Positions 938 to 47,100 of a stretch of 64,000 bases of DNA are shown here, one piece after another. The notes beneath the pieces are model-generated. The model searched no databases. It was not told the DNA's origin and was given only the letters and a program-made list of their open reading frames with translations. Where the stretch lies: positions 1 to 64,000 of the forward strand of contig JALIZF010001292.1 in assembly GCA_029948255.1 (NCBI GenBank). Direction: 5' to 3'. Within the stretch, counting starts at the first letter, position 1. Every line of letters starts with the position of its first letter. Source of the stretch: Telmatactis stephensoni. Lineage: Eukaryota > Cnidaria > Anthozoa > Actiniaria > Isophelliidae. The translations under genes were made by a program, and so were the position numbers.

Positions 938-3900
938 CTACAATGCGGTGTAACGAGCCTTAAAACCGCGCGCAACATGTAAATGCGCGGACTGGAACCT
1001 AATATTGACCACATTGCCCTTGATACTTATGGGCAGCGGTTTGTGCATCCCACAAAATCGACCAATTTCGCGATTATTTTGCGCGTCTAAAATCAGTAAA
1101 TAGTCATAGGAGCACGTGACAGGCGAGTCATCAATGGCGAAGTCTTCGAACTCAATCTTGATCTCCTTGGCTTTAGGGACATTGATTTCCCAGTCACATG
1201 TCTGAAAGGTGGAATATATAACGTCATGAATTCATAAAAGTATTTCTTTGTGCGTGCAGGACACCCGAGGGAAGGGGTACGCACTCTGTTTGAGTGGGGT
1301 GTAAGCCTTAACGAAACCCTTACCCTATTTTATACTACAATACTCAGGTGCGATATTTCTCCTGCCTTATTTCAAACCAAAAAGGTGATTTTTAGACCAA
1401 AATGGTAGTTTTAAGACAGGGCGATACCCTTCAACTCACCACTCTGTTGGGGTAGCTATTGGGGTAGTTTGGACTGGAGAACTGGCCACTATTTCCTGAT
1501 AGCTGCCCACCGCAAACTGAAAGAACAATATCAAAATTAATTGATTGATCAGAATGACTTGGTACTTCACGTACCTAAGCTTACGCTACTAGGGGGGACA
1601 AGGGGTAAATTTCCTTTCCCTTGCACTTCTTTCCTCCACTTTAGAGTTAACTTTGCAGGCTAACATAACCGTGGACAGAGTCAACAAACAGATACCCTGA
1701 GATTAATGTAAATGTTCTTCTCACAATCTAGACAACGAGGGCAATTGGAGAGGGAACACAGGATTAACCTCCGGGATCCAGCGCTGAGTAATGAGCCCCA
1801 AGCGTGATGACGATTTGACCCCCTCTCTATGCCAGAACTGAAGTAAAGTTAAGTAAAGTAAAGTGACCATATTTTACGTCGATAACTCGTGACAGTGATT
1901 TGAGTAACTGATAAACATGAGGTCGACGGTGCACTCATTTTTACTCCCCTCTCTTCATCAGTGCTCCGCTTTCAGAGTATTTAAAGCTACTTAAAGCTGC
2001 ACAGAAAGGAAAGAAGTTGAAACAAGGATGTGAGATCCGGGGATCGAATTCTGGACATCTCGGCACCGCAGGCCGCGCACTAACCATTTGTGCCATCCTT
2101 CCTCTTTCAAAGTCACTAAGCAGAATCCTTTTCGGGTTGCAAAAATACGTTTTTGAAAAGGATTCTGGTATATAGAGGGAATTGGTCAAAGCGTCATCAC
2201 GCTAGGGGCTTACTGACCAGCGGACTGAAAATTTGACAGAAAAACGTGACAGCCGGACAAATTCATGACTGACCAACTGACTGATCGACCGATCGACTAC
2301 TGTTTATAAATGACTGATTGTATGACAAAACTATATACAAACAAACCTGGTAAAGGTCCAAAGGCACGGTACGACGCTTCAAATCCCTTACCAACAGTGC
2401 TACCGTCTGAATGAAAGTGTACTTTGGACCGGTGCCAGTCTATTTCTACTGTCTCGTTTGTTAGTGATCCACACAGTTTAGGTCCCTTTGGGGTTCCTGT
2501 GATATCCTCGATAGCAATATAGTCCTTACTGCAAACAACAGAAAAATCATGATCAATGATGAAGAACGACGAACTGATTTGTTGGTTGCAAGTTTCGTTA
2601 AAGCTTTCTTTCTTTCAGATCCTATGATTGAGTTTAACATACCTGCATTGTGGGCTGGCCTCGATATCAACCCGGTGAAATGTAATAACAACATCTTCGA
2701 AGTGTGGCGGAGGAATGATTACCCATGTACAATCTACCCCATTAGGGTAGGGAGAGGGGAAGTTTGGACTGTGAAATGATCCGCTTGCTCCAGTTAATAT
2801 CCTACTACATCCTGTCAAAGAATTAAAAATACTTGAGTCAAGACAAAAATGTCAATTCATGTCGTCCATAAACGCTTTACCTGTTTTGGGTGCGCATTGT
2901 CCATTCGTGAAAGAGATTTCATCAATTGCAATGTCACTGGTGAAGGTCTCTCCAACAACGCCTTCAAAAACCACCTTTAAACAAATAAATGTAAATAGCT
3001 TTAGCTAAGCATCTATGCTTGGCTTGAAAGACACAAGGGCGTGGTCATATGGTGGTCTTACTGCACCACTGAGTATGGTTCCATCAATAAATAAATAAAT
3101 AATGAATATATAAATTTGGGGTAGCTCATCACCCTTCCTTGCAGCCAAGTGCTGAATTACGAAGGGCGCTGCTCAGCTAGTTATAAAACGGATCTTCAGA
3201 GTGAGTGACCTCACCCCAGTTAAAATGGAAATTAGAACCTACCTACCTGGAATAAACAGACAAATAATCATTATATGATAACCATGATATAACGCACGCT
3301 CTCATTAGCCGAAGGACGCGTATACTACGAACTCTAAATATGCACACAGCACGCGCGCGCACTTTTCGAATTTTTGGTCAGTGTAAATGAATACTGAATG
3401 TTCATCCAAAGCAATTTTGATTTTATAAAAGAAATAGAAACTTGCTCGCTGTGTTGTGTACAGATTTAATGCACTAGGATTTTGATTAGATCACTCGAGA
3501 ACCGTAACATTTCTCTCGTGTTCTGATCAATCCCCGCGTGCTTTAAATCTGCACACAGCACGCGCGCGCGTTTTCTATTTATTTAATGGAAGAAAGTTTA
3601 ACAAAAACGATGAGCAGAAAAATTGTCTTTGACCACACTTTGCTTTGCGTGACAGATGACGCAATCTCTATGTGTCTGTCCTCTTATTGATCATATCTGA
3701 CAGCCAATCAGAAAGCGAGAAAATCACACGTTGTAGTAAAAATTGTCCTTGATCACATGCGAACTACAGCCAGGTATAGATAGCAGCGATTACCTGATAC
3801 GACTCTCCACCGTCCACGTTAACATTATCTTTTATCCAGAATTTCCCATGATCACCTGCAGCCGTCCAGACCATCCGGGAACCCTGAGTATTTTTAACAG

Positions 3901-6238
3901 AAACAAACAGGGATCCCATCTGTTGACCGTTCATGTTGTATGAAAAGCTTAGGCACTGGGGACCAGTCATAGGGCCGCTGACCAGAACTGCTTTGTCTCC
4001 TGGGCGCCTACCACTTGCTTCTATGTACGCATAGTTTCCTAGGATCATGAATGGAAAAATTAAATCATTGTTAACTTAGCGTTACGCAGGTTTCACGCAA
4101 TGAGTTATGTCACGTAACAGTGTTTTGCCTAGTCCATACTGATATGGGAAAATGCGCAAGTGCTTCTTGTAGATAATACTTGTAGTCCAGGACGAGGTGC
4201 GTACGAGAACAAGAACGTATCCAAGGGATTACGTAAATGACAGTTTAACGGCGTAAGAAATTGAAGTGGCCGTAACATTCCTAGGATCCGCTGCATTCTT
4301 GAGTTATTAGGGAGCTTAAGCATGAGGCGTTTTTGTCAACACGGACGTCACGCGTACGTTTTTGTTTGTGCGCGCGCCGTCAAAGATGAAATCTAGAACG
4401 TGAGAAAGCCTCAACTGACGTTCTAGCGAGAACGGGAGCCCTCTCTATTACGGCACAGGTCATGCGTACGTTTTTGTCCGTGCGAGCGCCGTCATAGATG
4501 AAATCTAGAACGTGAGAAAGCCTCAACTGACGTTCCGTTCTAGTGAGAACGGGAACCTCATCTATGACGGCGGACTCAAGAACATAAACGTACGCGTAAC
4601 GTCCGTGTTGACAAAAACGTCTCGTGCTTAACATTCCTTTTACCGTTTCTTGCGGCATTACGTATACAGTTATTTCAAAAAACTTTGGATACTGCATCCT
4701 GCATACTGAATAGTGCATTCAGAGACCAAAATTCCTTGTAGTTATTCAGTATGTTTTGGAGATGGCATGGTGAAAATCCTCTATAACAGCTATAACTAGG
4801 CAAATAGGTGGCAAAACGACAACAGAAACGATCAAAAATGCAATTTGTAAGTCTTGGAATGCACTATTCAGTATGCGGAATGCAGTATTCAGTATTCAAA
4901 GTTTTTTGAAACAGCTGTATACCTATTTAAAAAAGGTTGTCCTCAGTTTTAATGCATACTGCATAGTGAATACCGCATACCAAGACCAAAATGCTGTGGA
5001 TATCAAATTTTGGGTATTTTTCACAATTGTTATAAGTAGAAAAGTTGCGGAAAAAGTCCACTTAGATTCAACCTGGGAGGAAACAGAGAATCAACATTAG
5101 TATTATATAAAGCCTCTTGTTACCCAATTACAAATTGTCCATAATACATTTCAGTCTTGGTATGCAGTATTCACTATGCAGTATGCACCAAAACCAAGGA
5201 CAACCTTTTTTGAAATAGGTATATATGAATTAACGTACCTATAACGTATATGAATTTACGTACCTATAACGTATATGAATTAACGTACCTATAACGTATA
5301 TGAATTAACGTACCTATAACGTATATGAATTAACGTACCTATAACGTATATGAATTTACGTACCTATAACGTATATGAATTTACGTACCTATAACGTATA
5401 TGAATTTACGTACCTATAACGTATATGAATTAACGTACCTATAACGTATATGAATTAACGTACCTATAACGTATATGAATTAACGTACCTATAACGTATA
5501 TGAATTTACGTACCTATAACGTATATGAATTTACGTACCTATAACGTAAACATCACCGTATCGTGGACCAGTAAAATAGCTCGGTGTTTTGTCTTTACCA
5601 ATGGACCAATCAAAATCATCATTCGCAGCGTTAGTCCACGTTGGACACAAGCCATTATCAAAGTCACAGTCTCCTAGAAAAGAAAACTGTTAATGAGTAC
5701 TGATGTTAACATGCCCAGCGCGCGCGTACAGCACTGATGCAATTAATAATTTTTTTTTCTGTACGGTGTGTTCACCCCTGCAATATTGCGCGCAACACAG
5801 TTACACCGTGTGTCTACCTCTGCAATGTTGCGCGCAATACAAGAGAAACATTTGCAGAAGTAGAACTCGATCCTAAACCTGCAATTGTTGCATGCGCAAC
5901 TTTGCACGGGTGGACACACGGTTCAACTCTGTTCGAAATGTTGCAAAAACGTTTCAAGAAAAGTTTCATCAGTGTGTCTGTTTTTTTAAAACAGTATTGA
6001 CCAAAAACTGGATATAGTTTTTACTCATTAGTCGACATTCGAGATACTTTACAAACTAAAATGAGTTATAAACTCCGTCTTAGCGATTCTCGATGTTTCG
6101 AGGATTTATTATAGCCTTTGCTACGTTCTAGGGGTTAAGGGCATTACCTCGTTCCGAGCTGAGGGCCCTAGTTAACTGGCCCCCTCGGAACGAGGAAAAC
6201 AGGATAACACCACCACCACCACCACCACCACCACCACC

Positions 6239-6286
<48 letters not shown>

Positions 6287-7397
6287 AACAACACCGCGCA
6301 CAACGCACCTAACAAAATCAATTACCTGACGATATTGTTGGAATAGTTTCATACGAAACCTCAAAACCTTTGTCCGTCAAGTGATCGTTGCTATGGAAAT
6401 ATACCCTGGCTTCGTTTCCAGGGACTTTTAAACCAAAGCCGTTACCATAGAAACCACAAAATCTAGCTTTTTTGATGGGTTGACCTTTGGAGTTGGATAC
6501 AGTAACGTAATCATCTCTATGGAAAAATACTTATTCACAGTTACAATGTATCGCAGTCCTCTTGTAGTAATTCCACTCTTCTCAAAATTGTAAACTTTTC
6601 TCGTTTTTAAAACGTTTCAATTGCTTTTGTTATGCGCTTCGGAATGAGCGCGTCGTGTAGAACTTGAATTGTTGTTCCTCAGATAAAATACTTCATCGAA
6701 TATTGCGCTGGTTAGGGAATGCTGAACCAGTTAGGTAGGGTACAAGATAGCATAGAGTACAATGATATTACATAAAAATCTCACTCTATAATCTACAATC
6801 TCATATAATATTGGCCTGCAAGCTGAAGCGCTGGGATCCTTAACAAACTACGGCAACTTTGAGATTGGAATTGAAGTAGGATGTTTGAAAAAATATTGTC
6901 AGCCACTATACAGTTCTCATGTGCCAAGAGACCATAATACTAAGAGAGCGAATTAGTGGTATGATGGTATGGTATGATGATGTCTGCGCGATGTGCTTGA
7001 ACGGTGCTTAAGGATAGTTATAGTAACAGGTGGTTGATGCCATATCATCGCGCGCAAACAAAGAAATTTGATTGCTGGAGGAGAAACGGTTTGTATCCGC
7101 ACCCGCGCGCGTGAAAACCAATTCTATTGTGTCTTTTGTATGTACCTGCAGTTTGGTTCCATTTCAAGTCGAAATGCTTGAAATCTAATAACGACGGCAG
7201 CAGTTGAAGTAGCAGGTCTAATGACCCACTCACATCGTAGGTTATCTGGATAGTTATAGGGATATTGTGGACTTGTAAATGTACCACGTGATGCAGTTAG
7301 AATACTATGACATCCTGAAAATATTCAACAAAATATCGTTAGTGAACTTTGCTTGATTTGTCACTTTTTCAGTCCCAAGAATCCGTTAAATTAAGGA

Positions 7398-13138: not shown

Positions 13139-13267
13139 CCATAAAATTGTCGTATAGATTTACGTGACGGAGGATGATTTTTTATGTAATGGGTGAAAAA
13201 CTGTAGTACTTATTTTGAAAACTTCTCTACTAGCAGAATCTCCTTTTCTTCTTTGTTTTCTGCACGT

Positions 13268-13367
13268 TACAGCAGGAATTTCAAATGTTTTTATAGACAA
13301 CACGGCGCTGGCAGAGTCTCGGCACGGCACGGTCCGTTTCACACTCATAGGAAATCTGCTCTCATGT
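13268..13367. mobile_element. Half copy of the AGAGCAGATTTC-ended foldback family
   Basis: Contains CAGCAGGAATTTCAAATG, TTTTTATAGACAACACGGC and the terminus CCGTTTCACACTCATAGG followed by AAATCTGCTCT, all shared with copies at 14134, 20985, 21792 and 58843. The opposite end is not clear. Confidence 0.6.
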
Positions 13368-13846: not shown

Positions 13847-13975
13847 ATAGGTGCCGGTCGGTCCATTGATAATTGGTTTGATGAAAGTGTCAGCCTACAT
13901 TATAGTGTTTTTCATACTGTGACCTTCTCTAATAAGGATTTTTACAATAAATTAGAACAGTTTTCTTTTAAGTGT

Positions 13976-14131
13976 CGAAATCTGGTCCAGTCGATCAGTT
14001 GCGTAGTTACCTGTAAGTACCTGTACGCATATATGCGCGTGCGTGACACGTACGTACTTCAGACGGTTTTTACACTCATACGATCGAAATCTGGTCCAGT
14101 CGATCAGTTGCGTAGTTACCTGTAAGTACCT
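13976..14131. repeat. 47-bp direct duplication flanking a 41-bp repeat
   Basis: 13976-14022 is repeated exactly at 14085-14131 (begins CGAAATCTGGTCCAGTCGAT). Between them, 14027-14067 recurs with one change at 21049-21089, beyond the far GTACC array. Confidence 0.85.
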
Positions 14132-14245
14132 TTAGAGTAGATTCGTATGACTGTGAAAACGGCACCGCAGGGTCACGACACGGTTACGGCAGAAATTTCG
14201 AATGTTTTTATAGACATCACCATATGATGCGCGTTATAGGAATGC
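14132..14245. mobile_element. Left end of the AGAGCAGATTTC-ended foldback family
   Basis: TTAGAGTAGATTCGTATGAC, then GGCACCG, CGGTTACGGCAGAAATTTCG and TTTTTATAGACATCAC, closely matching 58843-58920. It leads directly into the first GTACC array. Confidence 0.65.
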
Positions 14246-14325
14246 CTTTTCGAGTTTTCTTTTTTGGTACTTGTATTTGGGTACCACATCCCATATGAAT
14301 ATCCCATGCACCCCTGGTATGTCGG

Positions 14326-16247
14326 TATCACAGTACCACATTATCACAATACCAAGTATCACATACATAACCAGTATCACAGTACCACGGTATCAATACC
14401 ACGGTATCACAGCACCGCGGCATCACAGTGCCAGATTATCACGGTATCACAGTACCACGATATCACAGTACCTAAGTACCACGGTACCATGTACCATGTA
14501 CCACAGTACCAAGGTACCGCAATACCACAGTACCACAGTACCACAGTACCAAGGTACCACAGTACCACAGTACCAAAGTACCACAGTAGCAAAGTACCAA
14601 GGTACCAAGGTACCAAGTATCACAGTACCAAGGACCACAGTAGCAAAGTACCAAGGTACCACAGTACCATGGTACCACAGGTACCACAGTACCATGGTAC
14701 CACAGTACCAAGGTACCACAGTACCAATGTATCACAGTAGCAAAGTACCAAGTACCACAGTACCAAGTACCAAGTACCAAGTACCAAGCTAAGGTACCAC
14801 AGTACCAAGGTACCACAGTACCAAGGTACCATGGTACCACAGTACCAAGTACCAAGGTACCACAGTACCACAGTACCACAGTACCACAGTACCACAGTAC
14901 CATGGTACCACAGTACCACAGTACCAAGTACCACAGTACCAAGTACCACAGTACCAAGTACCAAGGTACCACAGTACCACAGTAGCAAGGTACCACAGTA
15001 GCAAAGTACCAAGGTACCATGGTACCACAGTACCAAGTACCAAAGTACCAAGGTACCACAGTAGCACAGTACCAAGGTACCAAGGCACCACAGATACCAC
15101 AGTACCACAGTACCAAGGTACCACAGTACCACAGGTACCACAGTACCACAGTACCACAGTACCACAGTACCAAGTACCATAGTACCATAGTACCACAGTA
15201 CCAAGGTACCACAGTACCACAGTACCAAAGTACCAAGGTACCACAGTAGCAAAGTACCAAGGTACCACAGGTACCACAGTACCACAGTACCAAGGTACCA
15301 CAGTAGCAAAGTACCAAGTACCACAGTACCAAGTACCAAGTACCAAGTACCAAGCTAAGGTACCACAGTACCAAGGTACCATGGTACCAAGGTACCAAGT
15401 ACCAAGGTACCACAGTACCACAGTACCAAGTACCATAGTACCAAGGTACCACACTACCAAGGTACCACAGTAACAAGGTACCACAGTACCACAGTACCAA
15501 GGTACCACAGTACCACAGGTACCACAGTACCACAGTACAAAGGTACCACAGTACCACAGTACCAAGGTACCACAGTACCACAGTACCAAGGTATCAAGGT
15601 ACCACAGTAGCAAAGTACCAAGGTACCAAGGTAACACAGGTACCACAGTACCAAGGTACCACAGTAGCAAAGTACCAAGTACCACAGTACCAAGTACCAA
15701 GTGCCAAGCTAAGGTACCACAGTACCAAGGTACCACAGTACCAAGGTACCATGGTACCAAGGTACCAAGTACCAAGGTACCACAGTACCACAGTACCACA
15801 GTACCACAGTACCACAGTACCAAGTACCATAGTACCAAGGTACCACACTACCAAGGTACCACAGTACCAAGGTACCACAGTACCAAGGTACCACAGTAGC
15901 AAAGTACCAAGGTACCAAGGTACCACAGGTACCACAGTAGCAAAGTACCAAGGTACCACAGTACCACAGTACCACAGTACCAAAGTACCAAGGTACCACA
16001 GTACCACAGTACCAAGGTACCACAGTACCACAGTACCAAAGTACCAAGGTACCACAGTAGCAAAGTACCAAGGTACCACAGTACCACAGGTACCACAGTA
16101 CCACAGTACCAAGGTACCAAGGTACCAAGTATCACAGTACCAAGAACCACAGTAGCAAAGTACCAAGGTACCACAGTACCAAGGTACCACAGTACCATGG
16201 TACCACAGTACCAAGGTACCAAGGTACCACAGTACCAAGTATCACAC
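14326..16247 (+). repeat. GTACC minisatellite array 1 (GTACCACA / GTACCAAG units)
   Basis: About 1.9 kb of 8-bp units GTACCACA, GTACCAAG, GTACCAAA and GTAGCAAA, with 7-bp GTACCAA variants. The outer edge (14326-14470) is worn, with GTATCACA and CACCGCGGCATCACA forms; the inner edge at 16247 is abrupt. A marker block ending AAGTACCAAGCTAAGG occurs three times (about 14790, 15355, 15710), showing higher-order duplication. Open frames of up to 369 codons (Val-Pro-Trp-Tyr-Cys-Gly-Thr-like) arise only because the units lack stop codons. Confidence 0.97.
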
Positions 16248-18254
16248 TAGTACTTTGAGTTGTTTGTACGTCGTTAATTATAAATGTCATTGATGTCTTG
16301 AATGTATAATACTTCAGGATACTTCTAATACTGTTGAACTGTTTGTCAATTATAAAATGCACACAAGTTTTAGAATTGCTGTCGTACAACTTACGTGTTA
16401 TAATAAATTATATGCGGGATCGCCTTGTAGCTTGTCGTTGAAATCAGTTATACAACAATGCAGAATTGCTAGTTGGACTATTTTTGGTCGTTATCGAAAG
16501 ACATTTATTCATTCCTCAATAATATCTGAATATTGCTCTCCAATTAACACACACACACACACAACAGGAAATGTTTACTGACTAACTGTCATGCAGCGGA
16601 GACTCGGTTGCCGCGATTCGGCGAATTTTAAGCTTCTAAAAGTTCAGATCTTCAGTTTTACATTCAGTCAAAATATGATTCTGGCACATAAATTTTTAAA
16701 GAAGATACATGTTACTTGTGGTAATCATACGAAGGAAATCCTGAAGAAATAATAGAGAAGTGTGTTGTGTTTGAGTCTCGCGGGGGATCTAATTTCCGTG
16801 ACGTATAACAGCGCTGCGCTATTTCTGGTATAATAATTTTTGGCGCCAAAACCATTGAATACATTTTGCTCAGTCACTGCTGTCATGCTGCAATTGCTTC
16901 TTTTACTTGGCATTTTTATATTGGCATTTTTCAATCTCTTTCATTTACAGCAGATTACCTACCAGTTAGATACATGGAATTGCTAGCTGTAGAAAGAAAC
17001 TTTCGAATCGAAACATTCCAATCGAACATTTTGCTAAATAATAGCCTTAGTCATGTTAGTTCAGAAAACATTCTCTCAAAGAGAAATTACAAGATCATCA
17101 AGATTGACCCCGGGTCATGCTAGTAATAAAGTTTGTTAATAACTGGAGTCCATCAAGCTGTCAAAACATCGACACATCAAACACTAATCAATCACGAGTC
17201 TCTTTTCTTAAATAAACTAGCTTTTTAAAATCAGTTAGTTTTATAATCATTGCCAACGCTAGCTGTTTGAGATTGTTTGAAAAATTGTTTTATACTCAAA
17301 GTACTAAATATTTTGAACTGTGTGTGTCCGACACTGATCCTTTTAGTTCAATATTGAAGGTCAACTAGCAGTGTTCGTCACACAACGCACAGGAGATAGA
17401 CAAGAAAGATATATCAGACAAAGCGGTGTACTTTCGTGAGTTTTAGGGGAACAGTTCTGCTAACGTGGATACACCAGCTGTTGTCTGCTCGCAGCACTTC
17501 ACTTTCTATTAGAAATAGCTAGTCTATAATCGTACTATTTGCTTGGGGCCTCAGAACACGGAGGCAGGTCATCGGGCCGTTTGATCTTTGTCTGACGCGA
17601 TCAATGTTATGTCCTCTTGCGACATAGCGGTTGCACTTGTGATAACAGATTATATGTCATATGTAAACACAAGGTCCGAAAGTGCAACCCGACCAACAAA
17701 GGCATGTCTTGTCCATCCGTTTACACTGGATCACATACTGAGACAAAATTGTTGTCCTTGATCCTGCTAGTAGAACACCCTATGGCGTGGAGTGGCATTC
17801 AAAGTCATTTTTAATTCAATGCTGGCATAGCCGCCAGTATTGCCTGCTGTTAGTCATTATTCCGATAGAACTTCCCCATAAATCTCTAAAACTTATCGGA
17901 CGGCAAAGCAAAGTAGCGGATGTATCTAAAATAGACAATGGTATGTAATTTGAAGACCATTTGTGATATAAGATACAGCCACGTCACTGTTAGTATGACT
18001 TGGACGCCACAATAGATAGCCCTTCACTTTTCTTCTTCTTCTTCTTCCTTTTATCAGGGGGACTGATTAGACAGAAATGCTCAAATCATAAATTAATAAT
18101 TGTCTGCTCATCCATTAATTGGCATCAGTTCCCCTGATTTAAATGCTTGATTGTTGATTTTAACTGTTTTAGTTGAGGGCACCTAGTTGAATAAAAGGTG
18201 CCTGCCAAAATCTTTAAATTTGCCATGTTGTTTTATCCAATTAGCACTGTGAAC
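16248..18254. other. 2-kb spacer between opposed GTACC arrays; no gene seen
   Basis: Ordinary AT-rich sequence. I see a short (CA)n at about 16548-16563, no open frame above 90 codons with coding character, no transposase and no RNA gene. Confidence 0.5.
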
Positions 18255-20875
18255 CTGTGGTATCTTGGTTCCTGATATTGTGGTACCTTGGTCCAGTTGG
18301 TACTGTGGTAGTCCTGGTACTGTGGTACCTTGGTACTGTGGTACCTTGGTAGTGTGGTACCTTGGTAGTGTGGTACCTTGGTACTGTGGTACTTGGTACT
18401 GTGTTACTTGGTACTGTGGTACTTGGTACTGTGGTACCTTGGTACTGTGGTACCTTGGTACTTTGCTACTGTGGTACTTTAGTACTGTGGTACCTTGGTA
18501 CCTTGGTACTGTGGTACCTTGGTACTGTGGTACCTTGGTACTATGGTACTTGGTACTGTGGTACCTTGGTACTTTGTTACTGTGGTACTTGGTACTGTGG
18601 TACCTTGGTACTTTGCTACTGTGGTACCTTGGTACTATGGTACCTTGGTACTTGGTACTGTGTTACCTTGGTACTGTGGTACCTTGGTACCTTGGTACTG
18701 TGTTACCTTGGTACTTTGCTACTGTGGTACTTTGGTACTGTGGTACCTTGGTACCTTGGTACTGTGGTACTTTGGTACTGTGGTACCTTGGTACCTTGGT
18801 ACTGTGGTACCTTGGTACTGTGGTACCTTGGCACTGTGGTACCTTGGTACTGTGGTACCTTGGTACTGTGGTACCTTGGTACTGTGGTACCTTGGTACTG
18901 TGGTACTTTGCTACTGTGGTACTGTGGTACCTTGGTACTTGGTACTGTGGTACTTGGTACTTGGTACTGCATGTGGTACCTTGGTACTTGGTACTGTGGT
19001 ACTGTGGTACCTTGGTACTTGGTACTGTGGTACTGTGGTACTTGGTACTGTGGTACCTTGGTACTTGGTACTGTGGTACTGTGGTACTGTGGTACTGTGG
19101 TACCTTGGTACCTTGGTACTGTGGTACCTTGGTACTGTGGTACTGTGGTACTGTGGTACCTTGGTACCTTGGTACTGTGGTACCTTGGTACTGTGGTACC
19201 TTGGCACTGTGGTACCTTGGTACTGTGGTACCTTGGTACTGTGGTACCTTGGTACTGTGGTACCTTGGTACTTTGGTACTTGGTACTTGGTACTTTGGTA
19301 CTGTGGTACTGTGGTACCTTGGTACTTGGTACTGTGGTACTTGGTACATGGTACTGTGGTACTGTGGTACCTTGGTACTGTGGTACCTTGGTACTGTGGT
19401 ACCTTGGTACTGTGGTACCTTGGTACTGTGGTACTTGGTACTGTGGTACCTTGGTACTGTGGTACCTTGGTACTTGGTACTGTGTTACCTTGGTACCTTG
19501 GTACTGTGTTACCTTGGTACTGTGGTACCTTGGTACCTTGGTACTGTGGTACTTTGGTACTGTGGTACTGTGGTACCTTGGTACCTTGGTACTGTGGTAC
19601 CTTGGTACTGTGGTACCTTGGCACTGTGGTACCTTGGTACTGTGGTACCTTGGTACTGTGGTACCTTGGTACTGTGGTACCTTGGTACTGTGGTACCTTG
19701 GTACTGTGGTACCTTGGTACTTGGTACTTGGTACTTGGTACTTGGTACTTGGTACTTTGGTACTTGGTACTTGGTACTTGGTACTTGGTACTTGGTACTT
19801 GGTACTTGGTACTTGGTACTTGGTACTTTGGTACTGTGGTACCTTGGTACCTTGGTACTTGGTACTGTGGTACTTGGTCCTTGGTACTGTGGTACCTTGG
19901 TACTGTGGTACCTTGGTACTGTGGTACTTGGTACTGTGGTACTTGGTACTGTGGTACCTTGGTACTGTGGTACTTGGTACTGTGGTACTTTGCTACTGTG
20001 GTACTGTGGTACCTTGGTACTTGGTACTGTGGTACTTGGTACTTGGTACTGCATGTGGTACCTTGGTACTTGGTACTGTGGTACTGTGGTACCTTGGTAC
20101 TTGGTACTGTGGTACTGTGGTACTTGGTACTGTGGTACCTTGGTACTTGGTACTGTGGTACTGTGGTACTGTGGTACTGTGGTACCTTGGTACCTTGGTA
20201 CTGTGGTACCTTGGTACTGTGGTACTGTGGTACTGTGGTACCTTGGTACCTTGGTACTGTGGTACCTTGGTACTGTGGTACCTTGGTACTTTGCTACTGT
20301 GGTACTTTAGTACTGTGGTACCTTGGTACCTTGGTACTGTGGTACCTTGGTACTGTGGTACCTTGGTACTATGGTACTTGGTACTGTGGTACCTTGGTAC
20401 TTTGTTACTGTGGTACTTGGTACTGTGGTACCTTGGTACTTTGCTACTGTGGTACCTTGGTACTGTGGTACTGTTGTACTTGGTACTGTGGTACCTTGGT
20501 ACTTGGTACTGTGGTACTGTGGTACCTTGGTACTGTGGTACCTTGGTACTGTGGTACTGTGGTACCTTGGTACTGTGGTACCTTGGTGGTACCTTGGTAC
20601 TTGGTACTGTGGTACCTTGGTACTGTGGTACTGTGGTACCTTGGTACTGTGGTACTGTGGTACTGTGGTACCTTGGTACTGTGGTACTGTGGTACTGTGA
20701 TACTGCGGTACTGTGGTACTGTGGTACTGTGCTACTGTGATACTTGGTACTGTGATACTGCGGTACTGTGGTACTGTGGTACTGTGATACTTGGTACTGT
20801 GATACTGCGGTACTGTGGCACTGCGGTGCCGTGACAACGTGGTGCTGTGACACCGCGGTGCCGTGACAACGCTAA
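18255..20875 (-). repeat. GTACC minisatellite array 2, opposite orientation
   Basis: About 2.6 kb of GGTACCTTGGTACTGT units, the reverse complement of array 1. A block around 18905-19195, marked by TACTGCATGTGGTACC, recurs at about 19986-20277, so a segment of about 1,081 bp was duplicated. A run of 7-bp units (GGTACTT) lies at 19710-19830. The outer edge (20700-20875) decays into GATACTGCGGTACTGTGGCA and GCGGTGCCGTGACAACG forms. Stop-free frames of 681-792 codons exist in all three forward frames and are judged spurious. Confidence 0.97.
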
Positions 20876-20959
20876 TGCCGGGGTTGTAGGATTCCAGTCT
20901 TAGTTCATTTTTGAGCACCTTTTCGTCTTATCATTCTCGTTATTTTCGGGTACTATGTT

Positions 20960-21047
20960 ACGTGTATCATGGGGAATTTGACATCACGGCACTGACACGG
21001 CCACAGCACGGCGCGGTCCGTTTCACACTCATATGAAATCTGCTCTA
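20960..21047. mobile_element. Right end of the AGAGCAGATTTC-ended foldback family
   Basis: Contains CACGGCACTGACACGGCCAC and CGGTCCGTTTCACACTCATA, then GAAATCTGCTCT: the inverted counterpart of 14132-14170 and nearly identical to 59385-59441. The 41-bp direct repeat follows at 21049-21089. Confidence 0.65.
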
Positions 21048-21791: not shown

Positions 21792-21945
21792 TTAGAGTCG
21801 TTTTCGTATGAGTGGGAAACTTACCGTACCGTATCGTAACTGTACCAGCTGTATCATAGTTTCTATAAAAACTTTCGAAATTCCTGCTGTAACCGTATCG
21901 TATCGTAACTGTACAGTGTTCCCACTCATACGAAAACCATTCTAT
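21792..21945. mobile_element. Short complete copy of the foldback family
   Basis: About 154 bp. The left end TTTTCGTATGAGTGGGAAAC mirrors the right end GTTCCCACTCATACGAAAAC. The core has GTACCGTATCGTAACTGTAC, TATAAAAACTTTCGAAATTC and CCTGCTGTAACCGTATCG. Confidence 0.75.
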
Positions 21946-26500: not shown

Positions 26501-27159
26501 CACAGGTAGCCCAAGCTGTGCATCTGTATATGAAATATATGGGATTCACGATCGATTTGCTGAAAAATAAATTTTGAATAAATAAACAATTTGGACTCAT
26601 GATACTGTTGTGCTTGTCTTTCTGTGTATTTCTGTGAAGTTTCAAGCCGTTTCGTGCTCATTTGAGGGAGTTATAGCGATTTGAATTTTTCTCCCTTCAT
26701 GTACATATATTACTGGAAGGTTGGAAGGCTCAACTGTCAAAAATTCAAACGACCGACAAAAAAGGCCTCGAAAATCACTCCAAAACCAAAACCAGGCCAA
26801 AATATTCCCAAAAAACCATTGCCACATGAATTTCCAATATGTCGATTGCCTTTATTTCTCCACATTTTACGTGCAACACCCTCAAAAAGACAGTTTTTGA
26901 AGTTTTTTTTCGCTGGACCTATGCTCTGCAAAACAGCCCCTGCACCACGGTTACCAAGCTCAATACCCCACTGGGGACGGGGAAATTTTGGCGCACATGT
27001 GTGGGGAGGTAGTGAGGTCGATTTTGTACCGCACATGAGGACGAAGGAAAAGCTTCACCCAGTACTTACAGTTCTTTTTCAGCAGTTTTTGCGAATTCTT
27101 CTGGATATCTTTGAGTAGAATGCCTAAAGAAAGACCATGTTAGCAAGGTACTATAGTAA
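26501..27159 (+). repeat. Left arm of a long, near-perfect inverted repeat
   Basis: About 659 bp matching the reverse complement of 27628-28287. An open frame of 145 codons in this arm (26681-27118) is identical in translation to its mirror at 27669-28106, so the arms agree over at least 438 bp. One single-base length difference lies near the outer end (GATTCACGATCG against GATTCCACGATCG). The frame opens on TTG and shows no recognisable domain; I do not call it a gene. Confidence 0.95.
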
Positions 27160-27627: not shown

Positions 27628-28287
27628 TTACTATAGTACCTTGCTAACATGGTCTTTCTTTAGGCATTCTACTCAAAGATATCCAGAAGAATTCGCAAAA
27701 ACTGCTGAAAAAGAACTGTAAGTACTGGGTGAAGCTTTTCCTTCGTCCTCATGTGCGGTACAAAATCGACCTCACTACCTCCCCACACATGTGCGCCAAA
27801 ATTTCCCCGTCCCCAGTGGGGTATTGAGCTTGGTAACCGTGGTGCAGGGGCTGTTTTGCAGAGCATAGGTCCAGCGAAAAAAAACTTCAAAAACTGTCTT
27901 TTTGAGGGTGTTGCACGTAAAATGTGGAGAAATAAAGGCAATCGACATATTGGAAATTCATGTGGCAATGGTTTTTTGGGAATATTTTGGCCTGGTTTTG
28001 GTTTTGGAGTGATTTTCGAGGCCTTTTTTGTCGGTCGTTTGAATTTTTGACAGTTGAGCCTTCCAACCTTCCAGTAATATATGTACATGAAGGGAGAAAA
28101 ATTCAAATCGCTATAACTCCCTCAAATGAGCACGAAACGGCTTGAAACTTCACAGAAATACACAGAAAGACAAGCACAACAGTATCATGAGTCCAAATTG
28201 TTTATTTATTCAAAATTTATTTTTCAGCAAATCGATCGTGGAATCCCATATATTTCATATACAGATGCACAGCTTGGGCTACCTGTG
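27628..28287 (-). repeat. Right arm of the long, near-perfect inverted repeat
   Basis: Mirror of 26501-27159. The arm ends about 350 bp upstream of the first coding exon of the pseudokinase gene. If transcribed, both arms would fold into a hairpin of about 650 bp. Confidence 0.95.
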
Positions 28288-28634: not shown

Positions 28635-31600
28635 ATGGCTTCAACACCACCTTGGGTAAGTATTATCGGGAACCTATTACCGTGTAAGCCCATGTAGTTT
28701 ACGTTTGTAGAAGTACAAGCAATGAAATACCAAAACGTTGGTCGAATTTGGAGTCTGTCAGCTATTATCTCGTGGCACGATATAGTCACATGACTCGATA
28801 AAAAATGTCGAGCAGATTTTAATAATAATAATGATATTAAATTTTGTGACCTATTTCACTTTGTGAATTGATTGTTCAAATGTACAAAGACAATTTATAG
28901 TTGAGTTTTGTTTTGTACAATATTTGTAGGTATTCATAGTAGTTGGTATTGGAGGTGCATTTCTGATATTGATTATAGTATGGATAATATGTAAATGCAG
29001 GTATGTGTGCATGTAATGCATCAATCAGCCCCAGGGACCCATCCTCAGGAATGCAGATTGTTATTCTGTCCTTTTCTTAGGGTCTGATTATATGAACTGG
29101 GCTGGCCTGGTTAAGCAGGCTGATTTCTTTTCCCTTGGGGCCACAAAACAAAAGAAGTCAGGCCCTTACCCCTAGCTTGTTCTGCAAGTAAAGTTTTCTC
29201 TCATTTCTGATTGGTTAACCTGACCAGGTTGACCAATCAGCATCTAGTATTACAAACCACCAGTGTCTACCTCCGGCAACTGTGTGTGATAGCTCTGTGA
29301 ACAAAATTGGTGTTTTCTCCCACTTGGGCAAGAAATATATACCAGTATAGCAAATCTTGGCAAAGGCCCAGGGGTTGACCCCTGGGGAATCCCATGGTTG
29401 ATACATAAATACCTAGAGGAGAGAAGAAATCCCTGGGGCATGAGGTGATTTTAGTAGTAGCATTATCCTTATGTCAAAAAGCTATTTCCAGACTGTTCTC
29501 ATATTCTAAAGTTAAAAGTCCCAAATTTGCAACATGACATTCGCTAATCAAGTTCCTTCATGTTATCCTTTTCAAGCCTGAATGGCCTTGATGGCAATGA
29601 CATTTTTTAATGAATGATATATATATATTTTTTGCAGACAAAGGTATCAAATAGATTATTCTGCTCTGGATGAGGAGCGAAGTCTGTTACAGAAATGGGA
29701 AGATGAAAAAAGAATGAGAAAAAATACAGAAAGAGGTAAACTTGAGTCACTATCACTTCTCTCTGACCCTCTGCCCTGTCCTGGTACATGTGATCTACAC
29801 CACATTGAACAAATTCTGAGTCATCCAAAAATTTAACATACAGTAGCCCAACAGTGGGCCCTGGAAAATATATCATTGTTTCACTCACTGATCCAAGTTT
29901 TGGGCCCTTAAATGACGAGATGGTACAAACGACTCACAGCTTGGATTAGTCAACGATGCTATCTTTTTGGGGCTCACCATTTGGATACGTTACATTGAAT
30001 ATATTATGTCACTTTAAGTATGTGGATTATAACTTTGAGTATCTTTACCTTGCAGATGCTGTGTTATTAAACTGTTATTATTACTTAAGGGATAACAGTA
30101 ATTACAGTATTATCAATCATCTGACAGATATAGGTATGTTTTAATGGTAATAAGTGTTTGTTGTTTACTAGCTAAAGTAGCTATCTACCTCTGGTTATAC
30201 AAAGGTTGCATAGTGCTACTAACAGTATCTGTTGAGTTTTTCCTCCCTCAGCAAAAATCAACATGTGAATTGAGCGTTGTATGTAGAGTATATTGAATGT
30301 GGTGGTAGCGAGCGCGAATGGGAGTCTTGGAGATATTAGCAGTAATGCTACTCTGAAATTTGAGGATAAACTAAAATATTTGATTTTGATTTTTTGATTT
30401 GAGTAAATTCTTATGCAGTGGATAAAATGATTGCATTGTCCAATAAATGTATCTAGTGAATACAGGATTTATCCAATGCATGGTGTTATACACCCTTTCT
30501 GCATCCAGGACCTAATACCTTTGCAAGATGAAGAATCCTGTAATGAGAGACATTTCTTTCTGGCTCTAGCCAAAGTAAACAGGCCATAAAGCAGACATTT
30601 TTTGTCTGGCAGGGTCTGTTTTCCAGTACTTAACCTTTTCAAAGCAGCTATCTCTCTAAGTAAGGGCCAGTCCCAAGATAAGACGTTTATTGATAAGACG
30701 TTTATTGATAAGATGTTTATTGATAAGACGTTTATTGGGAGGAGAGTAGTTAGAAGGACAGTTGGAATGGCTTCTAAGGGATGAGAGCACTGAAATGCTA
30801 GTTCCATGGTGGTGTCTGCCATAGATAAAGACACTTTTTATACCTTAGAGCAGATTTTGTATGAGTATAAAACAGTATGCACTGTGTCGTAACCTGATGT
30901 CAGTGCCATGTTGTCTATAAAAACATTCAACATTTTTGCCTTAACCATGCCGTGCCATGTCATTTTCATAGTCATAATACAACTGTCCTATGTTTGCTTT
31001 ATCTGTAGGTAGTCGTATCAGTAAACATTGGTTCCTGGTTCAAGACTCGAGGTCAAGATCACAAAACCTATTAACAATGACACAGTGGAGTCAACAATGT
31101 ATTCTTCCTTGTAACAAACAAACAAAAAGAACTTTGTCTGAATTGTTTAATATATTAGCATCAGTAAGTATATTGTAATATAATGAATTATTCTTTTACT
31201 TACCAGTAATTGGAAAGACTTTAATAGTAAGACATTTTGGCCCTCAGCCAGGCCCTCAAACTGAGGCCTCACTCTATCATTTGCACTGAAGTAGTAGATA
31301 GGGAGGGAGGGAGGGAGAGAAGGAAGGAAGAATGGAGGGAGAGAGGGCCCCTCTCTCCCTCCATTGAGGGAGGGCAGGGAGGCAGGGAGGCAGGGAGGGA
31401 AAGATTATTTGAATGATTTGTAGAGACTGTTTGAGTCAACTTTTCACTATATTTTCTAGCATCCTTACATTTTTCCTGTTCAAAGCATTGATTTCATGTT
31501 AGAACAAAGGATGTTAGTTCTTATTCAACCATTTATTCAAGCTGGTTCATTAAAGGACATGATTTATTGTGTAAGTATTTGTCACCAACTAATAAACTTT

Positions 31601-42943: not shown

Positions 42944-44857
42944 CTAAAGATACGTATCTTGTACTGTGGGCTCATCGTTGTCTTCACTATTAACTCCGAG
43001 ATAGAATGAAGTCTTAGAACATGACGGAAAAATTCCTTCTGTGCTAGAAGGATGTTTGTCTAGTTTATCTGTAGTAGAATCGAGCTCTGATTGGTTAATA
43101 GACTGTGAATCTGTAGTAGAATCGAGCTCTGATTGGTTAATAGGCTGTGAATCTGTAGTAGAATCGAGCTCTGATTGGTTAATAGACGGTGAATCTGTAG
43201 TAGAATCGAGCTCTGATTCGTTAATAGATAGTAAATTTCTGCCTAATGGCTCCTGGTCTTCAAATCCCTCCTTTGCAATAATATGTTCATCGTTGATACT
43301 TGTGTCTGTATCTTGCGCGTGGGGATTTTCAAGTACTGTGCTCTTAAGCACGTTTTTCCCATCAAAGTTCGTCGGATTGTCGCCTTGAGCTATTTCCGAA
43401 GACATAATTTCGTCTTCAGTAGATATTTGCTGGTCATTTAGAGATACATCATCCGATAACAACCTTTTTGATCCACAGTTCTTACAATGCACGATAGGAT
43501 TTGTCGAAAAAATATCATTTTCAGTTATTCCAGACTTTGTATCTATGTCAGCAGAGCACATTTTAACGTCGACAGTGATCATCTTATTATCGATAATCAA
43601 AGGACTTGGCGGTCGAGGTGCACCCGAGTGTCGTCGTACTGAACTCGGAATTTGTCGAGAAGAAGTCGGAGATGTTCGCACTGAGTTCAGAGGTGGTCGT
43701 GCTGAACTCGGAGGTGATCGTGATACCGTCGGGGTAGTGTTCGTATGGCACGAAGATATTCGTGTAGGTCCCTGAAAACTCGACCTGACACCATTAACAC
43801 AGCTAGGCGGTGACCTTAAAGAGCCTTTATAGTCCAGTTTACCACTAAGTCCAGGATTTCTTGATAAATTTTGTGGATTTTCTGTTAAATGAATTGTTTT
43901 CTTGTTGCTCCGTCCACAGCAGCATACAAAGTTGATATACTTAATGTATCCTTCGCGAAACTGTCTAGTGATACTACCGTAAATTATCGGATTTACACAG
44001 CTATGGAAGAACATCAAAGCTTCTGCTAACAACCAAAACTTCTCCGAGAGATTTTTATATTGTTCTCCTCCAAAGTCCATAAGAATCCAAGCCATTTGGT
44101 TAGGTAGCATACAAATTACAAATAACACAACTATTATAGCAACTGTTCGTATAATATGGATGTTGTCTGCTCGTGATTTTTGCTTGACGAGTTGTCCACG
44201 ATGATTAATTGATGTCCTGTTTGGTACTTTTGTAGTAACAAGTGTGATGGCAATTGTTATGTAGGCAATAGCTATTATAGTTACTGGAATAGCAAACTGA
44301 AGGACAAACAGCACCGCAGTGTATGCCTTTCTATGCGTATCTTCAGCCCAACCTTCGACACAGTGAACTCCCTTGGCGTCTGTAACTACCATTAATGGAG
44401 CAATACAAATAATCGATAGCGTCCAAACTGATATAATTCCAAATAGTAAAGTAGGTTTTTTAATACGAGGTCTGAAGGGAAACAGTATCGCCCTGCATCT
44501 TTCAACAGCCATCAGAGTTAGAGTAAAGATGCTGACAAATAGCGACACGGACATCATAGGCCATAAGAACTTGCAATAAAACTGAAACTTTGTGAACTTC
44601 TCGAACAGCTCATAGTAGTAAAAAGGTAATGCAAAACACAAGAATGTAAGATCAGAGATTGCCAAGTTAAGAATGAAATAATCGTTGACAGTTCGTTGCT
44701 TGTGCTTGGATTTGATGACAACCACGACTAGAAAGTTTCCAATGGTACCAATAACAAAGAGAAGAACATAAAACACGATTTTGAAGATTGTTTCTGCTTC
44801 GCTTGGTGATTGAATTGGGGAGTTCCCACTCGTGGCATTGGTTGTATTATTAGTCAT
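42944..44857 (-). CDS. Class A GPCR, peptide-receptor-like, intronless, 637 aa
   Basis: Single open frame from ATG at 44857 to stop. The N-terminus has glycosylation sites (NNTTNAT). Seven membrane segments fill about 24-300: TM1 holds GN (N41), TM2 has NLAISDL, TM3 ends in ERC where most receptors have DRY, TM6 has the proline of CMLPNQ, TM7 has NPIIYG. FVCCCG after TM7 is a likely palmitoylation site. The architecture is closest to neuropeptide receptors; the ligand cannot be named from sequence. The tail of over 300 residues is unusually long, Ser/Pro/Arg-rich (TSPTSSRQIPSSVRR), and carries four 14-residue repeats (INQSELDSTTDSQS). Lack of introns, against the spliced receptor at 22.7 kb, suggests a retroposed or ancestrally intronless subfamily. 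Confidence 0.92.
   Translation of the reverse strand: MTNNTTNATSGNSPIQSPSEAETIFKIVFYVLLFVIGTIGNFLVVVVIKSKHKQRTVNDYFILNLAISDLTFLCFALPFYYYELFEKFTKFQFYCKFLWPMMSVSLFVSIFTLTLMAVERCRAILFPFRPRIKKPTLLFGIISVWTLSIICIAPLMVVTDAKGVHCVEGWAEDTHRKAYTAVLFVLQFAIPVTIIAIAYITIAITLVTTKVPNRTSINHRGQLVKQKSRADNIHIIRTVAIIVVLFVICMLPNQMAWILMDFGGEQYKNLSEKFWLLAEALMFFHSCVNPIIYGSITRQFREGYIKYINFVCCCGRSNKKTIHLTENPQNLSRNPGLSGKLDYKGSLRSPPSCVNGVRSSFQGPTRISSCHTNTTPTVSRSPPSSARPPLNSVRTSPTSSRQIPSSVRRHSGAPRPPSPLIIDNKMITVDVKMCSADIDTKSGITENDIFSTNPIVHCKNCGSKRLLSDDVSLNDQQISTEDEIMSSEIAQGDNPTNFDGKNVLKSTVLENPHAQDTDTSINDEHIIAKEGFEDQEPLGRNLLSINESELDSTTDSPSINQSELDSTTDSQPINQSELDSTTDSQSINQSELDSTTDKLDKHPSSTEGIFPSCSKTSFYLGVNSEDNDEPTVQDTYL
43060..43228 (-). 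repeat. 42-bp in-frame tandem repeat in the GPCR tail
   Basis: Four copies spaced exactly 42 bp (GAGCTCTGATT at about 43082, 43124, 43166, 43208), encoding INQSELDSTTDSxx. The last two positions vary (SP, SQ, KL) and the fourth genomic copy has ATTCG for ATTGG. Acidic and Ser/Thr-rich, so possible kinase sites. Confidence 0.93.
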
Positions 44858-47100
44858 TTTGACTTTTACTCCCTTCTCAAACGCAACTCAAGTTTGAATG
44901 CTCCGGTTTGTCAGGAAATTACCACTGCTTCCTTTTCTTAATGTCAAAGTTGTGTCGACAAATTCTAGATTTTGTAGTTTCTTTGACTAGTATAGGATGT
45001 ACGTCTTGAAATCGTTTACCTCATTGCAAAGCACATTCAGGTATATACAGAAGAAGATCTCAGCACTTTTCGCTCGGGTGTTTTCTTGCCTAATCAAGCT
45101 GCTATATTTCTTTTCCTGACACTGTCATGCCGTGCGTCAGTAAGCAAGTTGACTGCTTCCTTTATGGACGTCAAACTGTTGTCAGGCTTTCTACCCTATA
45201 GACGGCAAAGAACCATTAGTTTCGTTTAACGTCTAAAAGTTGATACGTTATTTGAGCAGCTGAAACTTATGGAATACAATAGAACATCTCTATTTTACAA
45301 GGGTATAGGGGATTATCCTACAAAATACCACTAGAAATGTGGAAAAAATATTCTAAAAACGTAGCTTGGTATTGTGCAGTTGAGTGACAATAAAAAAGCA
45401 ATGAAAAGAGTGTATCAAATTGGTACTAAAATATATACAACTTTATCTAAAAATGTTTACTACATGACAGTCGTAAGGATTAAATTATATCTGATGGATG
45501 GCTTTGATTTCCTTATATTCCTCTAAATGTTTTCTTTCTTATTTCTTTCTAATTCAATAGATCCATTAATGATTATATAGTAAACATTTAAAGAAAGAAA
45601 ACGTTTTCTTTCCTGTTGAAATGCTTTTCATTACTCCAAAAGAAAGCTTATCCAATTGAGCCATCAATATGTTCACGGTATCATTGTATGCTAATTAACT
45701 TTGATCGTACTTGCAGAGTAATTGACAGATTTGTCAACAACTCATTTTTTGATATATTTAAACATATTACCCTTGTTATTGCTACAAATCTTCTTTACAA
45801 TCTAAAAATAAGTTTAAAAATAGATGATATTTTGACGTAAAGTTGATATGTTATGTCTTTCTCCTCCTGACCAAATCAGCAGAAAAAAAAGAAGAAAAAA
45901 AAGGGAATATGTTTGAAAGTGAAATGTGTTAGGTTATCTCCCGAGAATATAGTTGACTTTATATTTATACCTGTATTTTGCTTTAATTAGTCGGTATTTT
46001 ATGAAGTTTGAAGGTAATCGAATAATCCACGTTTCCTATCCATTAGTTTAAAATCTTCCTGTGGAGTAATTTACTCTTACTTGGTCAGGAAATGGCATTC
46101 TTTAGCAGTTACTTTCCTACAGCAAGAAGTTAATCCACTTTGCATTAGATGCCTTGTAGGGGAGAAGAAGAACAACAAGACGCGGGTGTTTGTTTTCATT
46201 TTAGTTTTTCAAGGAAATTTGAATTTTGAAACAGAAATCTTGTGCTTAGATTAGACCCTGTATTTCGTAAGAACTGTACGAAACTGTTAGACTAAAATAT
46301 AAGTCAACTTTGTTATCTCAATCAATTTGGAACTCCTTGTTTGATTTTTGAATGGTTTCATATAGGCAAATGGTCTACCACGCCTGACTAAACTAACTTT
46401 GACTAAAATTTGAGTTGACAATGTCACACGAATTTTCAAAATGAAACTTCAAAAATCTTGTACCAACTTTGCTACATCTTCCGACATTGCTTCCGTTTGT
46501 TCTTGTTGCTTTGCACGTATCACAAAAGAAAAGAAAATACAACACTTTTATTTAGCTTTTCTTTCCCAACAAGACAGCTAGGGTTACCACAACAACTTTC
46601 GCCAATTACTGTGGGCCATGTAGTGTAGTAGGCCTGACCACACACACTGGCAACTTCATGGCCTACTCTCCCCAAATAGTGGTATGGGTTCTTTAACGTC
46701 CCTTTTGAATAAATATCTTTAGTAATCTCATATCCCTTTCATCTAAATACTGCAATCCATTCCTACCGCAGTAATACAAGTAGCTTAAGACGGTAATCCT
46801 GTACAAAACGGATACACTATCAACTAATGTACGTTGGGTTCATCTTATATAGAAACTAGTCCCTCTTATTTTCCATAAAAATGAATATAAACATACTTTA
46901 AGTAAAGAAACATCAAATTCTAAATAAGTATACATAAAGATTCAAACAACTTCTGGAGGTTTCAAAAAATATTATATTCTCACATGGAACTTACCGAAAT
47001 CTGGTGGAAGCTCGGGCAATTTGGTCCTAAACTAAGTCCTCGCGCGATGCATACTTTTCGCCCAGCAAATAGAAGCTATTTCTTAATAGGGTTTTTACGC
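44858..47100. other. Upstream region of the intronless GPCR; no gene seen
   Basis: AT-rich. No clear TATA box within 150 bp of the ATG at 44857. Near 46590-46720 the sequence TATGGGTTCTTTAACGTCCC resembles a dispersed repeat known from other invertebrates; family uncertain. No convincing open frame. Confidence 0.45.

What the first reader, a model, noticed from the sequence alone, without database searches (positions are those of the whole stretch)
14326..20875. Two large GTACC arrays in opposite orientation around a 2-kb spacer
Array 1 (about 1.9 kb) reads GTACCACA/GTACCAAG; array 2 (about 2.6 kb) is its reverse complement. They have different higher-order blocks (AAGCTAAGG in array 1, GCATG in array 2), so each expanded on its own after the inversion. 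The GTAC core is itself palindromic and recurs every 7-8 bp, so each strand can fold locally and the arrays can pair with each other. I know no named satellite with this layout.
Basis: seen in the sequence. Interest (0 to 1): 0.8.

Follow-up and report, generated by a model that had tools for sequence, protein, structure and literature searches.

The report
Foldback transposon with repeat-array arms
The two opposed GTACC repeat blocks are the two arms of a recently active jumping DNA element in what looks like a sea-anemone genome, a known kind of element (foldback transposon) whose arms here grow and shrink like satellite DNA while its centre stays nearly unchanged.

Summary
Both arrays exist (14325-16246 and 18262-20872, opposite strands, 2,015-bp centre). 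They are the arms of one mobile element, window 14221-20983, that inserted into a ~150-bp MITE. The same 483-Mb genome (a receptor in the window is closest to sea-anemone proteins) holds 34 left-end and 32 right-end matches, window included; 22 contigs carry both ends in consistent orientation, with 22 different lengths (551-9,509 bp). Six of eleven copies examined at both ends have exact flush 8-bp target-site duplications. Nine near-identical centres differ pairwise at only 0-6 positions, so movement was recent, yet their nine left arms all differ in length. In the copies compared, left arms share long blocks with left arms and right arms with right arms, not across. One copy (C541) lacks the centre; one (C908) is a 551-bp mini-element. 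The window copy lost its last 30 bp and is probably immobile. Transposase and superfamily are not identified. Closest kinds: Tm1, Galileo, Tetris.

The parts
14221..20983 (+). Whole array-bearing transposon copy (right terminal 30 bp missing)
   Evidence: Ends conserved at other loci while MITE and flanks are not; inserted in a MITE
14221..14324 (+). Left subterminal region, terminus CATATGATGC; one GTAC at 61 bp from the terminus (14281-14284)
   Evidence: 34 genome matches, 34 of 34 candidates scored
14325..16246 (+). Left arm: array of 7-8-bp GTACCACA/GTACCAAG/GTACCAA units, 1,922 bp; outermost ~150 bp made of degenerate GTATCACAGTACC-like units
16247..18261 (+). Centre (spacer), 2,015 bp; no Pfam match in the nine ORFs of 46-104 aa that were scanned (of 32 listed at 35 aa or more, some of which run into the arrays)
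   Evidence: Nine near-identical copies in the genome, window included
18262..20872 (-). Right arm: same units on the other strand, 2,611 bp; outermost units GTGTCACGGCACCGC-like
20873..20983 (+). Right subterminal region, truncated: matches positions 1-111 of the 141-bp right end; GTAC at 20950-20953 would lie 61 bp from the lost terminus
14213..14220 (+). GACATCAC, left copy of the presumed 8-bp target-site duplication
   Evidence: Flush with CATATGATGC
20980..20987 (+). GACATCAC at the right junction; its GACA is also the element's own GACA, so a terminal deletion through this 4-bp match is inferred
   Evidence: Comparison with the C502 right end
14133..14220 (+). Left half of the target MITE (TA at 14133-14134, TIR TAGAGTAGATT...)
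20980..21047 (+). Right half of the same MITE (TA at 21046-21047)
13975..14131 (+). 109-bp local duplication whose first copy shows the MITE's own empty site

Best explanation
The two arrays are the inverted arms of one foldback-type DNA transposon that carries no recognised gene: short asymmetric ends (~104 and ~141 bp), two long opposed tandem arrays of 7-8-bp GTACC units, and a centre. Shown: it moves as a unit, makes 8-bp target-site duplications, moved recently, and carries the arrays opposed wherever both sides were seen. Shown: arm length changes much faster than the centre mutates, and the two arms evolve separately. Inferred: it moves by cut and paste with a transposase supplied by an unidentified relative; arms change length by slippage or unequal exchange within one arm, not by copying between arms; the GTACC unit, which also sits near both termini, began as a transposase-binding motif that was multiplied (this last step about 0.3). 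In the window the element jumped into a TA-flanked MITE at GACATCAC and later lost its last 30 bp.
For: Left end 34 matches and right end 32 matches in the own genome, every candidate scored; counted by hand from the two lists, 22 contigs carry both within 10 kb in the same orientation. Ends and centre are 99-100% alike at C19 and C66 while MITE and flanks give no hit there. Exact flush 8-bp duplications: C502, C67, C157, C254, C541, C908. Centre: nine copies, pairwise 0-6 differences, all ten variable columns private to one copy; nine left arms of nine lengths, about 1,047-2,365 bp. GTACCA array on one side and TGGTAC array on the other side of the centre in 18 of 18 loci where both neighbours of the centre are arrays in reach (L013-L021, of which L013 is the window, and L025-L033). 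Arms side-specific. Termini match at 15 of 23 ungapped positions (binomial P 1.4e-4, length chosen after looking). Empty site of the MITE. Precedent for transposase sites in arm repeats: Galileo (PMC3688188, passages).
Against: No transposase found. Five of eleven copies examined at both ends lack an exact flush duplication: C66 and C103 share 7-10-bp words that are not flush, none was seen at C19, C504 has a left flank shared with C103 and an unrelated right flank, and the window's right end is deleted. The TIR is short and imperfect. The GTAC symmetry at 61 bp was measured in two copies only (C502, C103), the left end has two other GTACs further out or in, and C504 carries a 4-bp insertion that shifts it. 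Some short-range unit order is shared between the window's arms (3-unit words with a rare unit: 14 shared, 5 in the reversed control; 4-unit words 14 against a Markov null of 10.8 +- 2.6, reached by 46 of 300). Binding function untested.
Confidence: 0.92

Rival explanations
1. Two ordinary local satellite or microsatellite arrays, opposed by a local inversion.
For: Units are short and the arrays have their own higher-order blocks.
Against: Same opposed pair with conserved ends and centre on many contigs, six with exact target-site duplications.
Confidence: 0.02
2. Assembly artefact or misassembly of one array.
For: C504 carries the left flank of C103 (231 of 231 bp) but another right flank, so at least one locus is chimeric or rearranged. 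No reads were available to me.
Against: Loci with different flanks, different arm lengths and exact duplications.
Confidence: 0.03
3. The arrays grew inside the TA-flanked MITE itself, which would be the true element (TIR at 14133 and 21047).
For: MITE TIRs flank the unit; TA target and empty site exist.
Against: At C19 and C66 the insert ends are present without the MITE; joining the two MITE halves at one GACATCAC restores continuity with other MITE copies.
Confidence: 0.02
4. Same transposon, but the arms are passive by-products of slippage in a palindrome-prone element, with no role in transposition.
For: The 551-bp copy C908 has only 311 bp of degenerate units in all between its ends, yet has an exact duplication: long arms are not needed for a successful insertion.
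Against: Both subfamilies keep arrays on both sides, and GTAC lies 61 bp from both termini in the two copies measured.
Confidence: 0.5
5. Same transposon, but its main biological effect is long hairpin RNA from the arms, processed into small RNAs.
For: 85.4% complementarity over 2,005 aligned columns.
Against: No transcript or small-RNA data were available; complementarity equals that of unit-shuffled controls (84.7-85.4%, three shuffles), so unit order is not kept for pairing.
Confidence: 0.1

Closest known systems
Tm1 (Mutator/Foldback family, root-knot nematodes; PMC3169594, passages seen)
   Same: TIRs built mostly of short tandem units (13-15 bp), differing in number between the two ends and between copies; asymmetric terminal motifs outside the inverted repeat; 8-10-bp target duplications.
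   Different: Tm1's unit is about 14 bp and the two TIRs of an element average 93% identity; here the unit is 7-8 bp, the window's arms pair at 85%, no better than unit-shuffled controls, the exact duplications are 8 bp, and no Phantom/Mutator transposase was found.
Galileo (P superfamily, Drosophila; PMC3688188 passages; PMC3573991 passages and one section)
   Same: Long internally repetitive TIRs, arm length varies between the two ends of a copy, chimeric copies with unmatched flanks; [quoted passage not shown]
   Different: In D. mojavensis the arm repeat is about 210 bp, up to three per arm, with 7-bp duplications; P-type transposase. Here hundreds of 8-bp units and no transposase found.
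Tetris / DAIBAM (Drosophila virilis group; PMC4079207, abstract, one results section and part 1 of the discussion)
   Same: Non-autonomous foldback element with tandem repeats in its TIRs, 8-10-bp duplications, a related short MITE-like form, repeats that expand.
   Different: About 220-bp repeats and a long outer flanking TIR domain; no 8-bp unit.
Drosophila FB and sea urchin TU elements (recalled; named in the Tetris paper, their own papers not read)
   Same: Recalled as long inverted repeats made of short tandem units.
   Different: Not compared here by sequence.

Membership tests
Foldback-type transposon (structural class) | Long inverted arms around a centre, arms internally repetitive | tested here: met
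Foldback-type transposon (structural class) | Mobile: many loci, unrelated flanks, target-site duplication | tested here: met
   6 of 11 copies examined at both ends have exact flush 8-bp duplications
Foldback-type transposon (structural class) | Arms variable in length between copies | tested here: met
   left arms; both arms of six copies
P superfamily (Galileo) | P-type transposase | tested here: inconclusive
   No Pfam match in nine centre ORFs or three peptides of the longer centre; the genome was not searched for the transposase
P superfamily (Galileo) | Secondary transposase sites in arm repeats | not testable with these tools
   Only the GTAC at 61 bp from both termini in C502 and C103 is suggestive
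Mutator superfamily (Tm1, Phantom) | 8-11-bp duplications (range partly recalled) and MULE/Phantom transposase | tested here: inconclusive
   Duplications are 8 bp in all six exact cases; no transposase found
hAT superfamily | 8-bp duplications; TIR of the hAT consensus (recalled) | tested here: inconclusive
   8 bp met; terminus CATAT does not fit the recalled consensus
Classical satellite DNA | Tandem array not bounded by conserved mobile-element ends | tested here: not met
   arrays outside this element were not looked for

The most novel reading that the evidence does not exclude
A transposon whose arms are a working platform of multiplied GTACC transposase-binding sites and that behaves as a satellite nursery: arm length is remade about every jump, each arm keeping its own lineage of higher-order blocks because growth is strictly within an arm, so the two arms of a foldable hairpin never correct each other.
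Probability: 0.3. Interest if true: 0.65.

Novelty: new member of a known kind. Interest (0 to 1): 0.5.

Why it matters
It gives a clean natural series for a long-standing question, how satellite-like arrays are born and kept inside transposons: nine copies with nearly identical centres but nine left-arm lengths, a centre-less copy (C541), a 551-bp mini-copy (C908) and a second subfamily. It also suggests that two long complementary arms of one element can stay separate lineages, which bears on whether foldback arms are homogenised by pairing. My literature searches listed no foldback element from a sea anemone: 'foldback' with 'sea anemone' gave one paper, on microRNA tools, and broader searches, of which capped listings were seen, listed none; the library holds open-licence papers only.

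Tried and rejected
Element = the TA-flanked MITE: my first reading, from TIRs at 14133 and 21047; rejected when other loci had the insert without the MITE. Right terminus at 20979 with flush GACATCAC on both sides: revised when C19, C66 and C502 showed 30 or more further bases. An early alignment of the window's own subterminal regions found no inverted repeat beyond shuffles (score 15, shuffle mean 16.1; for the outer 40-45 bp 176 of 5,000 shuffles as good), because the window's right terminus is missing; the imperfect 23-bp TIR only shows with an intact end. Array seed from the MITE: weak similarities of 16-38 columns without a significance test, not pursued since the MITE is only the target. 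Common order of units between arms: no run longer than the null (short words are told under evidence against). Protein in the longer centre of C1253/C866: two spliced-looking exons, no Pfam match at E 10, none of 13 candidates at E 0.001 (only proteins of similar length are candidates there). Viral and prokaryotic collections: no match to a 29-base array pattern. Text search for the unit letters in papers: 1,911 papers hold one of the two 8-letter words, 20 listed, no title about repeats. Search of the own genome for the exon peptide did not complete.
Full report
WHAT IS THERE. Array 1 spans 14325-16246 and array 2 18262-20872 on the other strand, with 2,015 bp between them. Of 227 and 320 parsed units, GTACCACA, GTACCAAG and GTACCAA make up most (86/48/24 in array 1; 129/91/50 in array 2), and rarer variants such as GTAGCAAA occur in both (12 and 7). 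GTACCA/TGGTAC counts are 194/8 in array 1, 0/288 in array 2 and 8/14 in 57,085 bp of the window outside 14133-21047.

THE UNIT IS A TRANSPOSON. The window lies in a 483,535,264-bp genome of 1,782 contigs. Its 647-aa receptor ORF at 42944-44887 is closest to sea-anemone proteins among the named hits (54% to Actinostola over 98% of the query, 70% to Actinia tenebrosa over 54%), so the host is most likely a sea anemone (inference). A search with the 2-kb centre listed 41 matches (40 of 2,058 first-look candidates were scored, so a lower bound): nine full copies at 99.7-100% including the window, two long copies at 97%, one copy split in two (C251), nine copies with only the first ~700 bp at 91-94% ('subfamily B'), and 19 hits of a ~330-bp stretch that is a separate repeat. 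A search with the 104-bp left end gave 34 matches (34 of 34 candidates scored) and with the 141-bp right end 32 (32 of 32), the window included in each. Counted by hand from these two lists, 22 contigs have both ends within 10 kb and in the same orientation: C688 (window), C541, C254, C230, C157, C67, C66, C502, C19, C908, C251, C866, C1355, C942, C528, C504, C392, C272, C103, C102, C1072, C266. Their lengths run from 551 bp (C908) to 9,509 bp (C66, which holds a foreign insert) and are all different. C413 has both ends about 36 kb apart and was not counted; the other contigs have one end only.

ENDS AND TARGET SITES. The left terminus is CATATGATGC or CATATGGTGC in nine of ten copies shown (C19 differs in its first four bases) and in C230, C67, C157 and C254; C1355 matches only from base 5. 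The right terminus is GGCATGGTATA, or GGCATGCTATA in C103. Eleven copies were examined at both ends. Six have exact, flush 8-bp duplications: TCACGTGC (C502), AAATTTTT (C67), GAGAGCTA (C157), AAATTTTA (C254), CTTGATTA (C541) and TGACATAT (C908). C66 and C103 share 7-10-bp words that are not flush, none was seen by eye at C19, C504 has the left flank of C103 (231 of 231 bp) but another right flank, and the window has GACATCAC flush on the left while its right end stops at position 111 of 141. There the element's own GACA meets the TCAC of the target, so I infer a 30-bp terminal deletion through a GACA repeat. In C502 the termini match at 15 of the first 23 ungapped positions as an inverted repeat (binomial P 1.4e-4, length chosen after looking).

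INSERTION HISTORY OF THE WINDOW COPY. The element sits in a short MITE with a TA target (14133-14220 and 20980-21047). Joining the halves at one GACATCAC gives a 148-bp sequence that aligns nearly end to end with the copies at 21793 and 30846, over its last two thirds with the copy at 13266, and, with many gaps in its left part, with the right end of the 600-bp copy at 58843. The MITE itself lies in a 109-bp local duplication, whose other copy shows the MITE's empty site.

ARMS. Six copies were compared. Among window, C19, C66 and C502, the longest exact shared blocks are 162-446 bp for left-left pairs and 261-645 bp for right-right pairs, but at most 72 bp for any left-right pair. In subfamily B (C103, C504) they are 228 and 275 bp against at most 103 bp, with the caution that these two share their left flank and so may be one insertion on the left; between subfamilies 53-89 bp. 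C541 agrees: left arm 201 bp with the window's left arm and 59 with its right; right arm 161 and 54. Unit order is not shared between the window's two arms in long runs (longest common run 6 units; first-order Markov null mean 7.0, 298 of 300 nulls at least as long), while short words with a rare unit are somewhat commoner than in the reversed control (14 against 5 for three units; 14 against 4 for four) but not beyond the Markov null for four units (mean 10.8, reached by 46 of 300). The arms align at 85.4% as a hairpin, no better than three unit-shuffled controls (84.7-85.4%), against 57.6% in direct orientation. A 251-base piece of array 1 folds as single-stranded DNA far better than shuffles (z -8.67, 0 of 200). 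The outermost ~150 bp of array 1 and ~100 bp of array 2 hold few canonical units.

TEMPO. The nine near-identical centres differ pairwise at 0-6 positions, three are identical, and all ten variable columns are private to one copy, which points to a recent burst. Their nine left arms are about 1,047, 1,700, 1,776, 1,922, 1,965, 1,986, 1,995, 2,266 and 2,365 bp (any nested insert would be included). So arm length changes far faster than the centre's sequence.

VARIANTS. C541 gives no match to the centre: the left arm (with AAGCTAAGG) runs directly into the right arm (with GCATG). C908 has 311 bp of degenerate units in all between its ends and no centre. C1253 and C866 carry about 2.8 kb more centre, 98-99% alike, with two spliced-looking exons of unknown relation. 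Opposed arrays flank the centre in 18 of 18 loci where both neighbours lie in reach (L013-L021, L025-L033; L013 is the window); in L022 and L023 the right array comes after the extra centre; in C251 (L024, L034) only the right array was seen; L035-L042 are the separate repeat and have no arrays.

HOW IT LIKELY WORKS. Shown: a mobile, opposed-arm element without a recognised gene, with 8-bp duplications. Inferred: a transposase from an unidentified relative cuts and pastes it. GTAC lies at exactly 61 bp from both termini in the two copies measured, C502 and C103, although the left ends hold three other GTACs each within 130 bp and C504 has a 4-bp insertion that shifts its right one. In Galileo the transposase binds about 70 bp from the end and again in the arm repeats (PMC3688188, passages), so I propose, at about 0.3, that the GTACC unit began as a binding site. 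Against a need for long arms stands C908, which inserted with very short ones.

WHAT IT IS COMPARED WITH. Structurally this is a foldback-type element, closest to Tm1, Galileo and Tetris. It cannot be filed under P, Mutator or hAT: no transposase was found and 8-bp duplications fit more than one. Differences from those relatives are the 7-8-bp unit, arms of up to about 5 kb (C230: centre end about 182952, right end from 188031; the parts of that arm that were fetched are array, the rest was not seen) and side-specific arm lineages.

MENDED ON RE-CHECK. 

Noticed in passing
window 26501-27159 and 27628-28287: An inverted repeat with arms of at least 659 bp, 99.8% alike, around a ~468-bp loop (my query began at 26501, so the arms may reach further out); each arm holds the same 150-aa ORF, without a Pfam match.
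   Followed up: partly
window 13266-13363, 21793-21944, 30846-30990, 58843-59444: Members of a TA-target MITE family with shared TIRs, the family that the array transposon jumped into.
   Followed up: partly
L010 about 2951-6450 (C66) and L061 (C1253): ORFs that by eye look like non-LTR retrotransposon endonuclease/reverse transcriptase (1,015 aa; 217 aa and 554 aa; not scanned against Pfam) lie inside the right arm of C66 and directly after the short right array of C1253.
   Followed up: partly
L022 from 3290 with L061, and L023 with L062 (C1253, C866): About 2.8 kb of extra centre, 98-99% alike in both copies, with two spliced-looking exons (MPKQ... and TCFVTCEELR...), no Pfam match and no homologue found: captured gene piece or remnant of the element's own gene.
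   Followed up: partly
L032/L045 (C504) and L033 (C103): Same left flank (231 of 231 bp) but different right flanks: ectopic recombination between copies, or an assembly switch.
   Followed up: partly
L025 about 760-920, L026 about 450-530: Within the left arms of C942 and C392 the array is met by a (TAA)n-tailed sequence beginning CGACGAAGATAAAACACCAGTTTCGACC, perhaps another mobile element (their left ends lie further out).
   Followed up: no
window about 17201-17527: A ~330-bp stretch of the centre is a separate repeat with at least 19 other places at 93-95% (capped).
   Followed up: no
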